Below the pieces are notes generated by a model. That model was not told where the DNA came from and ran no database searches. It saw nothing but the letters and a program-made list of their open reading frames with translations. A stretch of DNA of 64,000 nucleotides from Calycina herbarum (Eukaryota; Ascomycota; Leotiomycetes; Helotiales; Pezizellaceae): positions 248,001 to 312,000 of the forward strand of contig LLEY01000053.1 in NCBI GenBank assembly GCA_001414485.1, in the 5' to 3' direction. The position numbers and the translations under genes are program-made. This document shows, piece by piece, positions 1 through 10,685 of the stretch; the first letter of the stretch is position 1; every line of letters begins with the position of its first letter.

Positions 1-347
1 CGTAAGTCAAAACATCCTAACATTCTAAATGCTATAAAAACTCATGATTCCCCCAGTGGTTATACTGGAAAGACATACACCACACGATTCCAATCACAGC
101 CGAAGAAATCCAATACCTAGGAGACGTCCCGGGTGCCCGTTTCCACATGGATTATAGCTGGCACGAAGTCCACTGTCTGTACTACTGGAGAAAGGAGCAC
201 CGCTTTCGATTCAATGGCAAAATTCTAGATCCAAGATCTGATTCTGAAGAGCATATTAAGCATTGTGGTATGGTTTGGGGAAGGAAGATTACTTATGGTA
301 CGGGCACGGTCTCCGGGGTAGTGTTTGATACGAATTCGGAAGACTGA
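1..347 (+). CDS. UstYa-like (DUF3328-related) protein, 3' part only
   Basis: This is the C-terminal part of a gene cut by the left window edge. A consensus GTAAGT donor at 2-7 and an acceptor at 55-56 define an intron, and the last exon (57-347) stays open to its stop. It encodes WLYWKD followed by HEVHC and, about 29 residues later, HIKHC. These are the paired HxxHC motifs of UstYa-type proteins, in the divergent 'HCLYYWRK' form shared with the gene at 1039. UstYa-family proteins are copper-type oxidases or cyclases that act on ribosomal peptides or other secondary metabolites. The N-terminal transmembrane segment would lie outside the window. It is first in a row of five such genes around a repeat precursor. 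Family assignment is good; the substrate is inference. Confidence 0.72.
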
Positions 348-1038
348 CTTGGGGTCCTGTAGGGCATTCGGTTTTTCTGGATCTTGATAGTTTTTATGGG
401 GAATTTGAGTATGGTTTACATGCGGGTGGGCGTGATCTTGCTGATGAGTGAAAATGTTTTGTTTAATTACGATTTACGAAGAAGATTTTATTGGAATTGA
501 GCTGTTTACTTGCTCAGGCAGTTTTTGGTTGACCTTAAAAAACACAAGCGATGACGTAACTCTTGTTGTGACTGTTAGATGGTGGGGTCTTGCAGTTCAA
601 TGATAAAGAAAAGCTTTCAAGCATTATTTTAGCTATATTTTAATCGAGTATTTCAACGTTTTACGGAAGTGATGTTTTTAACAAACTACCGTAAAGTTAA
701 TTCCCCACCATGATAACCAAATGGCAACGTGGTCGGGTGACTCTCTTATAACCAATAGAAACTCTTGCTATCCAGTCTCACATTCCTCTTTACTGTGACC
801 ATGCGGCGAGGCATTACCACATTATGAAGAACGCCATACATGCAGTGATATACGATAGTATCATGTACATGGTGCATACTCCATGCATATTTCTTCTAGG
901 TGGCAAGTGCTTACCATAATGCTTACCATAACAACTCATTTTTGGCTTCCACTCGGTCAAAATCTTTCCAACATTTTGAGTCTCCCACCTCGACAATACC
1001 TTCACACATACAAAGTCTTTACTTCATCATTTTCAATC
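348..1038. other. Intergenic region
   Basis: I see no coding region here. It is AT-rich and should hold the 3' end of the upstream gene and the promoter and leader of the gene at 1039. An upstream ATG at 883 is in frame with that gene, but it adds 52 residues that do not look like the family. Confidence 0.5.
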
Positions 1039-1752
1039 ATGACACCTTGGTTCAAGTACTCTTCTTTGAATGTCGAAGACAAAGAATTTGTCAACGACAG
1101 CACTCAAGAGCTTCTCACCCCGAAAAAGAGAAGAAACTATCACTTCAAACCCATATTGGCCTTTTTAGGCGGACTTGCCTTCGGAATCGTGCTTTCTATG
1201 TCCTTCAACTCAGCAACCATTCCCAAGAAAACCCATGTACCATCAAGAAATGGGTTCTACACCACCAAAATCATCAACGGCGAAGTCATCGAGGGAACAC
1301 AATGCGGCGATTCATGGCAAGAAGCAAAGGCTCTAGGCTGTATCTATGACAAAATGGCCTCGCGCTGGTACTCTCCCGAGTGCTTCGACAAGGAATCCTT
1401 CGACGATATGATGGAAGAACCAGGGACCAACTTCACATGGTTTTCAGACAAGGATCATACCATTCAAGTCCCTTCCGAAATCGCTCAGCGGGGAGAATTC
1501 GAACTTCTGTACCCTCTCTACAACTTTCATAAGATTCATTGTCTTTACCTCTGGCGGAAAATGCATCACTCCCTCCTCAACAACTTGCCTCTCGATGACG
1601 ATCTTATGGAGGAGGATCATACAATTCATTGTACCAAAAATTTACTCACTTGGGCAGATCCACATGTTCAAGAACTTGCCTCCATTGCACATGCTGGAAG
1701 ACCATTTTGTCGACGCAACCCACTTGGAGTCATGCCTTTGGAGCTGGTTTAA
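1039..1752 (+). CDS. UstYa-like (DUF3328-related) membrane protein
   Basis: This is an intronless ORF of 237 residues from the ATG at 1039. A charged cytosolic tail is followed by one transmembrane helix (about residues 37-54). Next comes a Cys-containing block (C89, C101 and C115, in the pattern CG...EA..LGC...W..PECFD), then HKIHC (164-168) and HTIHC (194-198). The paired HxxHC motifs mark the UstYa superfamily, whose studied members oxidise or cyclise ribosomal peptides in the secretory pathway. The closest relatives in the window are at 1 and 3969. The C-terminus after HTIHC looks unlike the family. A different frame running past the stop, to about 1877, encodes a Cys-containing tail resembling the expected ending, so a frameshift or a missed splice is possible. 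An ATG at 883 is an alternative but less likely start. Confidence 0.72.
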   Translation: MTPWFKYSSLNVEDKEFVNDSTQELLTPKKRRNYHFKPILAFLGGLAFGIVLSMSFNSATIPKKTHVPSRNGFYTTKIINGEVIEGTQCGDSWQEAKALGCIYDKMASRWYSPECFDKESFDDMMEEPGTNFTWFSDKDHTIQVPSEIAQRGEFELLYPLYNFHKIHCLYLWRKMHHSLLNNLPLDDDLMEEDHTIHCTKNLLTWADPHVQELASIAHAGRPFCRRNPLGVMPLELV

Positions 1753-3003
1753 GGGAGATGGGGAAAGGAAGAGGGCTGTCACTTGAGAGTTTTAGTACTG
1801 AATTGGATATTAAGCTTGGGAGATATGATTTTTTGGAATGTGGGCACAATTATGTTGGTGGAGAAATCTTTCCATAGTTTCTAACCACTGGATTCATCGA
1901 GTTTCTTATATGATATATGTATTTAAGAAGTGAGAGCTCTTGGCAATACTCTACATACACGAATTTTGTTGCAAGAAAATCTGTAGAACCACGAACATCA
2001 GATTTCTTTCAAGAGGGTCTTTGTGAAAGTTAGAGTTTATTATCGCTATGCTCAAGTCCATAAACAGTTCGTAAATGAAAATTTCATTTTCTGACACTTC
2101 TCGTAATGAAGTTGTCCCGAGTGTAAGCTATTTACCACTCATAAAATCTATGTATATCGGAACCGCTTAGACCCTTACGGTACAGTGTACACATTTGTAA
2201 AACATCATGAACAAGCGGTGAGCTACTCGCGGAGCTTCTATGCGGCGTTGAAAGTCTTCGGACAGCTTCAAGGATTAATTCTAACGAAACTAGTTTCTCG
2301 GACCAGGAAGCTTACCAAGTTGCATATGCATCATGCATTCTTCTCGGTAGAAGCCATTAATCCGCGTCAGCTGTATTGTTCATGACGGATCAGTGCGATG
2401 GCCAGAACTGGCGATGACCAACTATTCTGGCTTGGCTGCTTGTCACGCAATTGGTAAGGAAAATCATGGCTCTCTGTAGACCTCCTCTTATCATATTTTG
2501 CTTCGTAAGAATTTCAGAACTAGGTGTTATTCAGTTGCTGCTGGTACGGGGCGGAAATGCAGCAGCGGCAGAAGACCGAAGCTCTCAGTAGTTGTCCAAT
2601 GATCGCTTAGCTTTGTTTACCGAGCCTCCACTTTGAAATATCGACTTCGGATTTTGGAAGGCATATAGCTGCATTCCAAACAACCTTCTTGTTTAGGTAT
2701 CTGTAAGGCAGTCGTAAAATATCCCGTAAGCACTCGCAGCAATATTATAGCAGAAATCTCACAGCAGAAGCTTTTGATCCTTTGGTATGGATGCATGTGA
2801 ACTACTTGGGTAAAATGCAATTCTCGTTAAAAAGCGGCTCCTGGTAATTTACCGATCTCATATGAAATACAGAAGTGGGCATGCGTAAATTTGATCATCT
2901 TGACTGTCTTATATCTCCTCCGTCGCACTCTTTTCTTCTTACCTCACTTCAACAATTTCTGAAACTTTCCACCCCTCACAATTCACACACCCTCGCATTC
3001 AAA
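1753..3003. other. Intergenic region upstream of the repeat precursor
   Basis: There is no convincing gene. Short ORFs at 2185 and on the minus strand near 2617-2820 resemble nothing known. The last 120 bases before 3004 are strongly C/T-rich with a TTATATC near 2910, typical of a highly transcribed fungal leader, and probably form the promoter and 5' UTR of the precursor gene. Confidence 0.45.
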
Positions 3004-9271: not shown

Positions 9272-9457
9272 CCGTGCTGATTTAAGGCACAGGCCGCCCT
9301 ACTAAAAGCACATCAAGAGCAAACCGTAAAAAGACAAGAAAAATTCCAATCGATTCCTAGAGCCGTCTTGAAAAATTGAAAACAAGTCTTATAAATTTTC
9401 AATAAGTGGTTGTAGTTGCATCGAGGTAGAAGCTGGTGTGCCTCAAATCGGCACGGT
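9272..9457. mobile_element. MITE-like element, copy A
   Basis: The 186-bp element is bounded by 19-bp inverted repeats: CCGTGCTGATTTAAGGCAC at 9272-9290 and its near reverse complement at 9439-9457. The two mismatches between the arms are transitions of the type RIP makes. It has no coding capacity. A related copy lies at 22,216. It ends about 180 bp before the SDR start and so sits in or next to that promoter. Confidence 0.7.
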
Positions 9458-9635
9458 TTTTCTTGCCCGAAGAGCGAGGCCCGACAGAACATCAATATAA
9501 ACAACTTCCTCAGACTCCTTTAAGACTCCTTTAATATTTCCCATCACCTCCTTATATCCGTCTCTGCTTCAGTCCTGCAACGACCCTGTCACATCTCACC
9601 TGGAAAGTTTACTTTTTCAAACAATAACAACCAAC

Positions 9636-10685
9636 ATGTCGAACCTCGACGCTTCTCGGCTCTTCTCTGTTAAGGGACTGGTTGCTGTAGTCACAGGCGC
9701 TAGCTCCGGTTTGGGCAAAGTCATGGCTCATACTCTGGATGTTAACGGCGCAGCCAAAGTCTTCATTCTCGGCCGCCGAGAGTCCAAACTCAAGGAGGTT
9801 GCATCAAAAGCGGTGTGTAATGAGTTCTGATCCTTCCCTCTTAAGCTGATTGCTTTTTAGAAAAATGGTTCTCTCATTCCGGTCACATGCGATATAAGCT
9901 CGAAAGAATCCTTGCAGGCTGCAGTGTCGACAATCGAAAAGCAGACGCCATTTATCAATCTTCTTGTCGCCAATTCGGGCTATCTTGGGGAGGTTACCAA
10001 TATGGCCCCCCGGCCGGCAGAGCAGACTGTTGCTGAACTTCAAAAGGAGTTGTGGAACAAGACAACCTACGAAGACGCAAGCAAAGTTGTTAGTACCAAC
10101 ATAGCCGGATCTTATTTTACTTTTCTCGCCTTCTTGACCATGCTGGGAGCTGGCAATACGCACCCCGACAGCTTAGGAAAGAGTGGGCTGCTACAGAGTC
10201 AGTTCATTAGTACCACTAGCTTTGGTGGCTTGTGCCGAGCTGAAGCTCCTAGCTATGTCTACAACGCGAGCAAGGCTGCTTTGAACCACTTGACTAAGAC
10301 TCTGTCATCGGAGTATGCCAAACATAGTATCCGGGCCAATGCTATTGCCCCCGGTATGTTTGTCACGGAAATGACGGAGGTATGTGATAGGAAAAAAATA
10401 ATGTCTTTTGACCGATGAGTAGAAGCTTACATCGGAGTAGGCCCACACCTCAGGGGGAGATATCAGCGCCGTCGGCTCTATGCCGTGGCAAGCTATTCCG
10501 GCTACGCGAGCAGGCACAGAAGAGGTATGCCAACACTTCAGTCTGAATTGATCGAATGCTAATGTTTCTGCAAGGATATGGCCGGTGCTGTGCTTTACTT
10601 GGCATCTAGAGCAGGTTCTTTTGTGAATGGGTGCATCTTGCTACCGGATGGCGGAATGCTCTCTGTTCGCCCCGGTTCCTACTAG
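9636..10685 (+). CDS. Short-chain dehydrogenase/reductase (SDR)
   Basis: Exons 9636-9812, 9861-10379, 10441-10524 and 10575-10685 give 296 residues. The Rossmann NAD(P)-binding motif TGASSGLG is at residues 20-27, the ANSG loop near 96-99, and the catalytic Ser region (ISTTSFGG) near 175-182. The Tyr-Lys pair is in YNASK at 193-197, followed by the usual RANAIAPGMF segment and a C-terminal PDGG. This is a complete classical SDR that would reduce a carbonyl or oxidise an alcohol with NAD(P)H. The substrate cannot be read from sequence. It follows the UstYa-like genes on the same strand, so it could be a tailoring enzyme of the peptide cluster, but an unrelated metabolic role is equally possible. 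A MITE-like element lies just upstream. Confidence 0.9.

What the first reader, a model, noticed from the sequence alone, without database searches (positions are those of the whole stretch)
1..10685. Candidate new dikaritin-type RiPP locus: Kex2 repeat precursor with five UstYa-like genes and an SDR
The sequence directly shows a secreted four-unit precursor with Lys-Arg separators and one Tyr per unit, five neighbouring genes with paired HxxHC motifs and single membrane helices, and a complete SDR. In known dikaritin pathways (ustiloxin, phomopsin, asperipin) a Kex2-processed repeat precursor is encoded beside UstYa-type oxidases that cyclise the peptide through Tyr. The repeated AAYPVIEED core does not match a product I know. 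I infer a new cyclic peptide.
Basis: partly seen in the sequence, partly recalled or inferred. Interest (0 to 1): 0.93.

Follow-up and report, generated by a model that had tools for sequence, protein, structure and literature searches.

The report
Fungal repeat-peptide locus with UstYa oxidases
A fungal gene cluster encodes a secreted protein made of four copies of one short peptide beside five membrane-anchored, oxidase-like genes, and relatives of the peptide and of three of these genes occur elsewhere, so it very likely makes a modified, probably cyclic, peptide.

Summary
A 100-aa secreted precursor (3004-3306) carries four units separated by Lys-Arg, flanked by five UstYa-like genes and a short-chain dehydrogenase. 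All five UstYa-like proteins have one N-terminal hydrophobic helix and two HxxHC motifs 27-31 residues apart; the first gene starts 416 bp outside the window. Three unnamed precursor relatives bring the units to 13, and YPVIEEDIV is intact in 13 of 13. A Y2 and a Y3 relative lie on contigs of exactly the lengths (5484, 3252 bp) that hold two of these precursors. Relatives of Y2 and Y3 share a contig in Mollisia scopiformis (with Y1) and in Echria macrotheca, two fungal classes; no precursor was seen in these named fungi. Best reading: a RiPP locus that works like the dikaritins, with Kex2 release and then UstYa oxidation (ring closure at Tyr, perhaps desaturation). It meets the broad dikaritin definition except that cyclisation is untested; the strict one is not met (no tyrosinase or S41 peptidase nearby). 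Repeat precursors beside UstYa genes are known in over a thousand cases, so this is a new member of a known kind.

The parts
1..347 (+). Y1, UstYa-like gene, 219 aa; exons -416..-397, -347..1 and 57..347 (the first two upstream of the window, on G000:C329)
   Evidence: spliced model; HEVHC and HIKHC, one hydrophobic segment; relatives incl. Mollisia scopiformis P0030
1039..1752 (+). Y2, UstYa-like gene, 237 aa, single exon; HKIHC and HTIHC
   Evidence: PF11807 18.8 bits, cut-off 25; 9 of 12 family rows (own included) match PF11807 at E<=0.1; 11 relatives 42-84% identical
3004..3306 (+). precursor of a Kex2-processed repeat peptide, 100 aa, signal peptide 1-18 (inferred), four units
   Evidence: relatives P0001-P0003
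3076..3303 (+). four 57-bp units: (S/N)D(D/E)STAAYPVIEEDIVAK(R/M)
3969..4682 (-). Y3, UstYa-like gene, 237 aa, single exon; HFWHC and HIEHC
   Evidence: both motifs invariant in 9 of 9 rows, own included; profile match to the Y2 family, probability 98.7
5850..6855 (+). Y4, UstYa gene, exons 5850-6123, 6204-6481, 6535-6855, 290 aa; HQMHC and HTSHC
   Evidence: PF11807 79.2 bits, cut-off 25
7741..8760 (+). Y5, UstYa gene, exons 7741-7966, 8026-8145, 8220-8338, 8396-8477, 8546-8760, 253 aa; HSLHC and HTNHC (second motif formed across a splice)
   Evidence: PF11807 138.4 bits
8899..9057 (+). one copy of a two-copy direct repeat; the other lies at -951..-796, upstream of Y1; whether it belongs to the cluster's function is open
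   Evidence: 80% identity over 159 bp; two matches in the assembly
9636..10685 (+). short-chain dehydrogenase/reductase, exons 9636-9812, 9861-10379, 10441-10524, 10575-10685, 296 aa
   Evidence: PF13561 121.9 bits, PF00106 115.7 bits; closest solved chain 9k8q 'Spm14', 217 bits

Best explanation
This is a RiPP biosynthetic locus that works like the dikaritins. Shown: a secreted-type precursor with four near-identical units separated by Kex2-type Lys-Arg sites, beside membrane-anchored UstYa-like proteins with paired HxxHC motifs. Inferred: the precursor enters the ER, Kex2 cuts after each KR in the Golgi, and the flanks are trimmed. The UstYa-like proteins, held by one helix with the catalytic domain in the lumen, oxidise the conserved core YPVIEEDIV. 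One or a pair closes a ring from the Tyr side chain to a nearby aliphatic residue; others may introduce double bonds, as reported for three UstYa homologues of phomopsin. The SDR would reduce a carbonyl made on the way. A modified, acidic peptide is secreted.
For: Precursor anatomy and synonymous-only variation in the core. Five of five proteins with one helix and two HxxHC motifs; both motifs complete in 104 of 108 aligned Y1/Y2-type rows and invariant in 9 of 9 Y3-type rows, own protein included in each. Core YPVIEEDIV in 13 of 13 units of four precursors, KR at 9 of 9 internal unit boundaries, variable linkers. Linkage: precursor P0001 and Y2 relative P0013 both on a 5484-bp contig; precursor P0003 and Y3 relative P0011 both on a 3252-bp contig; Mollisia Y1, Y2, Y3 relatives on one 2,762,476-bp contig; Echria Y3 and Y2 relatives with locus numbers 357812 and 357814 on one contig; two fungal classes. 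Literature: DUF3328 genes accumulate beside such precursors (PMC7329392, section 7 read); broad definition of dikaritins and desaturation role (PMC10512285, passages seen).
Against: No chemistry and no expression data. The nearest tyrosinase match on the contig is about 180 kb away and no S41 match is on it. Y1, Y2 and Y3 fall below the Pfam UstYa cut-off; profile comparison of the Y1 and Y3 families with Y4/Y5 alone is not significant (probability 2.0, and 1.9). Co-location in relatives rests on equal contig lengths and locus numbers, not on coordinates. The precursor search gave no hit on the long contigs that carry Y3 relatives (Mollisia, Echria, Neopestalotiopsis clavispora, and a 65,435-bp contig); short genes are often not annotated, but this is a gap. 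P0002's contig (1742 bp) gave no partner. Y4, Y5 and SDR were not tested for conservation.
Confidence: 0.8

Rival explanations
1. A linear secreted peptide signal (pheromone- or hormone-like) released by Kex2; the UstYa-like genes lie nearby but act on something else.
For: 6120 of 7878 surveyed repeat precursors have no DUF3328 neighbour (PMC7329392, section 7). The core is strictly conserved, as for a ligand.
Against: UstYa-like relatives of both neighbours share contig lengths with precursor relatives. The same paper's abstract says that almost all mating factors lack DUF3328 neighbours. The core Tyr is kept in 13 of 13 units.
Confidence: 0.1
2. The UstYa-like proteins modify the core without closing a ring (desaturation or hydroxylation only).
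For: UstYa homologues also desaturate residues in phomopsin (PMC10512285 passage). No tyrosinase is near, which ustiloxin and phomopsin need (PMC6514808 passages; PMC7329392 section 7).
Against: Asperipin-2a is closed by one UstYa homologue in a cluster of four genes, none a tyrosinase (PMC6514808 passage). The core Tyr is invariant.
Confidence: 0.2
3. Two pathways side by side: Y1, Y2, precursor and Y3 make the peptide; Y4, Y5 and SDR belong to another product.
For: Only Y1, Y2, precursor and Y3 have linked relatives in hand. Y4 and Y5 belong to the classical UstYa branch, the others to a divergent one.
Against: All genes lie within about 11 kb, and the intergenic repeat upstream of Y1 recurs upstream of the SDR. 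Phomopsin also has five UstYa homologues (PMC7329392).
Confidence: 0.3
4. A cell-wall or effector repeat protein that is not processed.
For: Secreted repeat proteins exist in fungi (general knowledge).
Against: No Pfam family above cut-off (no effector collection was searched). Linkers vary and the core does not, the pattern of released units.
Confidence: 0.04

Closest known systems
Phomopsin cluster (PhomA, five UstYa homologues, tyrosinase PhomQ)
   Same: Kex2 repeat precursor with KR sites; five UstYa homologues (PMC6514808 and PMC7329392 passages)
   Different: Here no tyrosinase or S41 peptidase nearby; an SDR is present; core YPVIEEDIV. Methyltransferase and zinc-finger regulator were not searched for
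Asperipin-2a cluster (aprA, aprY, aprT, aprR)
   Same: Repeat precursor, UstYa homologue, a reductase gene (isoflavone-reductase type), no tyrosinase (PMC6514808 passage)
   Different: One UstYa homologue there, five here; core FYYTGY there; no transporter seen among the ORFs scanned here, but none was searched for systematically
Ustiloxin B cluster
   Same: KR-separated repeats, two UstYa homologues, Tyr in the core YAIG (PMC6514808 and PMC10512285 passages)
   Different: Needs tyrosinase UstQ, absent near here; its other enzymes were not searched for here
Kex2-processed repeat proteins with DUF3328 neighbours (1758 of 7878 in PMC7329392)
   Same: Same overall gene arrangement
   Different: Whether this type is among their 838 types is unknown; the supplementary tables were not open to me

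Membership tests
Kex2-processed repeat protein | N-terminal signal peptide | tested here: met
   hydrophobic segment from residue 4 (mean 2.32 over 11 residues) and A-x-A before G19 by eye; no signal-peptide program was run
Kex2-processed repeat protein | repeats separated by Lys-Arg | tested here: met
   four units, KR after units 1-3
UstYa (PF11807, DUF3328) | score above Pfam cut-off | tested here: inconclusive
   Y4 79.2 and Y5 138.4 bits: met; Y2 18.8, below 25; Y1 and Y3 no match. At E<=0.1 match 9 of 12 Y2-type, 3 of 9 Y3-type, 1 of 6 Y1-type rows
UstYa (PF11807, DUF3328) | two HxxHC motifs and one N-terminal membrane helix | tested here: met
   five of five; helix from hydropathy only
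Dikaritin, broad sense (PMC10512285) | repeat precursor gene beside UstYa homologues | tested here: met
   precursor 3004-3306 with two PF11807 genes above cut-off and three divergent ones within 9.2 kb
Dikaritin, broad sense (PMC10512285) | core cyclised by UstYa homologue | not testable with these tools
   needs mass spectrometry
Dikaritin, strict sense (PhomA, PhomQ, PhomR, S41, DUF3328; PMC6514808) | tyrosinase PhomQ homologue in cluster | tested here: not met
   45 PF00264 matches in the genome, the only one on C329 at 66484, about 180 kb away
Dikaritin, strict sense (PhomA, PhomQ, PhomR, S41, DUF3328; PMC6514808) | S41 peptidase in cluster | tested here: not met
   5 PF03572 matches, none on C329
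Dikaritin, strict sense (PhomA, PhomQ, PhomR, S41, DUF3328; PMC6514808) | PhomR-like zinc-finger regulator | not tested
   no search for this family was run
Fungal mating pheromone | pheromone sequence | not tested
   compared from memory only; UstYa neighbours make it unlikely (PMC7329392 abstract)

The most novel reading that the evidence does not exclude
A RiPP under strict sequence conservation: nine core residues unchanged in precursors from several fungi while the sequence around them varies, made by a divergent UstYa trio (Y1, Y2, Y3) whose relatives span Leotiomycetes and Sordariomycetes, without a tyrosinase. Such conservation would suit a signalling or symbiosis peptide with a fixed receptor better than a fast-evolving toxin, and it would be a dikaritin-like product with an unusually acidic core.
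Probability: 0.2. Interest if true: 0.7.

Novelty: new member of a known kind. Interest (0 to 1): 0.5.

Why it matters
It adds a precursor family with an invariant nine-residue core to a class in which, by a 2022 review, only five products had been reported (PMC10512285 passage), and it offers a natural set of variants (core fixed, flanks varied) for asking which UstYa-like protein does what. Three of the five proteins belong to a branch that the Pfam UstYa model mostly misses: a precomputed PF11807 label stands on 3 of the 120 relatives listed for Y2/Y1 and on 0 of 9 rows for Y3. Such clusters may therefore be undercounted. For the predicted Y2 fold Foldseek found no solved structure at E<=0.001.
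Full report
What is there. The window is G000:C329:248001-312000 of a 68.8-Mb, 379-contig assembly. Going 30 kb upstream completed the first gene. The block reads: Y1 (exons -416..-397, -347..1, 57..347, +), Y2 (1039-1752, +), precursor (3004-3306, +), Y3 (3969-4682, -), Y4 (5850-6855, three exons, +), Y5 (7741-8760, five exons, +) and SDR (9636-10685, four exons, +). The models are open without internal stops. Exon borders were set by hand from GT..AG sites and frame, so single borders may be off.

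Precursor. It is 100 aa with a hydrophobic start and four units of 19 residues, KR after three of them. Between units the DNA differs at 4 to 16 of 57 positions, yet STAAYPVIEEDIVAK never changes: 55 synonymous against 9 non-synonymous codon differences summed over six pairs, the latter at the first, third or last codon. The protein is found once in the assembly.

Relatives of the precursor. One search of about 5.8 billion proteins gave three relatives at E <= 0.01 among 3476 candidates, all unnamed (source labels lgn and jgi). The four precursors have 13 units. YPVIEEDIV is intact in 13 of 13. In the D-S-T-x-x-Tyr lead-in, Ser stands in 13, Asp in 12 and Thr in 12 of 13, while the residue before Tyr is A, S, Y or R and the residues after Val9 vary. 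All 9 internal unit boundaries have KR. This suits a released core with free linkers. Since D-S-T is nearly fixed too, it may belong to the product or serve for recognition; the data do not decide.

UstYa-like proteins. Each of the five has one hydrophobic segment near the N-terminus and two HxxHC motifs 27-31 residues apart. Y4 and Y5 are clear PF11807 members (79.2 and 138.4 bits, cut-off 25); Y2 scores 18.8; Y1 and Y3 do not match at E <= 0.1, though Y1's last exon alone gave 14.9 bits. Y2 and Y3 families match by profile at probability 98.7. The link to the classical branch is weaker: 9 of 12 Y2-type, 3 of 9 Y3-type and 1 of 6 Y1-type rows match PF11807 at E <= 0.1. The Y2 family against Y4/Y5 gives probability 32.6 with both motifs aligned, and the Y1 and Y3 families against Y4/Y5 are not significant. 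Calling Y1-Y3 UstYa-like thus rests on motif pair, topology and the Y2 bridge. In an alignment of Y2 with 107 of the 120 relatives listed (13 near-duplicates, fragments or long fusions left out; 140 matched in all), both motifs are complete in 104 of 108 rows. In the usable model of Y2 (pLDDT 82.8) the motifs sit on two helices, 162-180 and 192-203. No solved structure matches.

Conservation of the cluster. No tool shows gene neighbourhoods in other fungi, so I used the contig lengths that the protein search prints. Precursor P0001 and Y2 relative P0013 (84% identical; a cluster of two contigs, the longer 5484 bases) share the length 5484. Precursor P0003 and Y3 relative P0011 share 3252. Mollisia scopiformis (Leotiomycetes) has relatives of Y2 (P0015), Y1 (P0030) and Y3 (P0012) on one contig of 2,762,476 bases. 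Echria macrotheca (Sordariomycetes) has relatives of Y3 and Y2 with locus numbers 357812 and 357814 on one contig; the number between is free for a precursor. Hirsutella minnesotensis (HIM_10353/10354) and Penicilliopsis zonata (Eurotiomycetes; one 95,255-base contig) have Y1/Y2-like pairs. Against this: P0002 (contig 1742) had no partner listed, the 5484 contig gave no Y3 hit and the 3252 contig no Y2 hit. No precursor was found on the long contigs of Mollisia, Echria, Neopestalotiopsis clavispora or the 65,435-base contig that carry Y3 relatives. Equal length is not proof that contigs are the same, but with the same source label and the right partners chance is unlikely.

In the source genome Y2 and Y3 are single: the next best matches are 37% and 32% identical over part of the length; Y1 was not searched. 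PF11807 gives 71 exon matches in the genome, so this is one of many UstYa loci. A scan for repeat ORFs with KR sites in 26 partly overlapping stretches from 18 contigs around other UstYa matches (213 kb) found plausible precursors at four contigs (L005, L013, L019, L026). L027 is doubtful, and L019 gives a second frame of the same stretch. In 123 kb of control DNA only one low-complexity tract showed, in two frames. The difference is suggestive, not significant (about 0.10).

How it most likely works. Shown: secreted-type repeat precursor, KR sites, UstYa-like proteins with one helix, relatives on contigs of equal length. Inferred from known pathways: Kex2 release; trimming; oxidation of the core with ring closure through Tyr; perhaps desaturation, reported for three UstYa homologues of phomopsin (PMC10512285, passages seen); reduction by the SDR, by analogy with the reductase gene of the asperipin cluster (PMC6514808, passages seen). 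In ustiloxins and phomopsins the N-terminal Tyr side chain is joined to an internal isoleucine (PMC9233826, passages seen); here Val3 or Ile4 of YPVIEEDIV are the nearest candidates, which is a guess.

Compared with what is known. A survey of 1461 genomes found 7878 repeat precursors, 1758 with DUF3328 neighbours; among these 65.6% of repeated sequences contain Tyr (PMC7329392: abstract, part 1 of 2 of section 6, and section 7 seen). So the arrangement is known in many cases. In the broad sense (repeat precursor plus UstYa homologue) this is a dikaritin locus, cyclisation untested. In the strict sense it fails two tested features: the only tyrosinase match on the contig is about 180 kb away and no S41 match is on it. 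The core was in none of the main texts searched.

Verdict. The finding is real and the reading is sound: a new member of a known kind, with a conserved core that makes it a good target for chemistry.

Noticed in passing
L005 198-728 (G000:C338), L013 7465-8055 (C250), L019 3227-3913 (C248), L026 3807-4145 (C326): Four other ORFs with KR-separated repeats (ADEDLGKR; QAYGQHTDDNPK..KR; NENVIWIILAYDEK..KR; ADADDQVVYTWSLPDEK.KR) near other UstYa matches of the same genome: further RiPP candidates.
   Followed up: partly
-951..-796 (L002) and window 8899-9057: A direct repeat, 80% identical over 159 bp, lies upstream of Y1 and upstream of the SDR and gave only two matches in the assembly: shared control region or scar of a duplication.
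   Followed up: partly
window 285-450: Y1 relatives in databases end in two ways (...TVSGVVFDTN or ...SVY.DV.SFY). The window sequence can give both, by keeping or splicing a 65-bp intron at 298-362, so Y1 may be alternatively spliced.
   Followed up: partly
window 11103-11222: A full-length 5S rRNA match (54.5 bits, cut-off 38) lies just downstream of the cluster.
   Followed up: no
window 12194-13246: A fungal fucose-specific lectin match (PF07938, 30.2 bits) on the - strand, in an ORF with a helix-like hydrophobic stretch by eye, is the next larger ORF downstream.
   Followed up: no
window 15406-16977: An OTT_1508-like deaminase domain protein (PF14441, 62.9 bits).
   Followed up: no
G000:C180:38413-41764, C51:89110-96938, C212:168346-173575: Groups of Y1/Y2/Y3-type matches at places that the PF11807 search did not list: possible further clusters missed by the Pfam model.
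   Followed up: no
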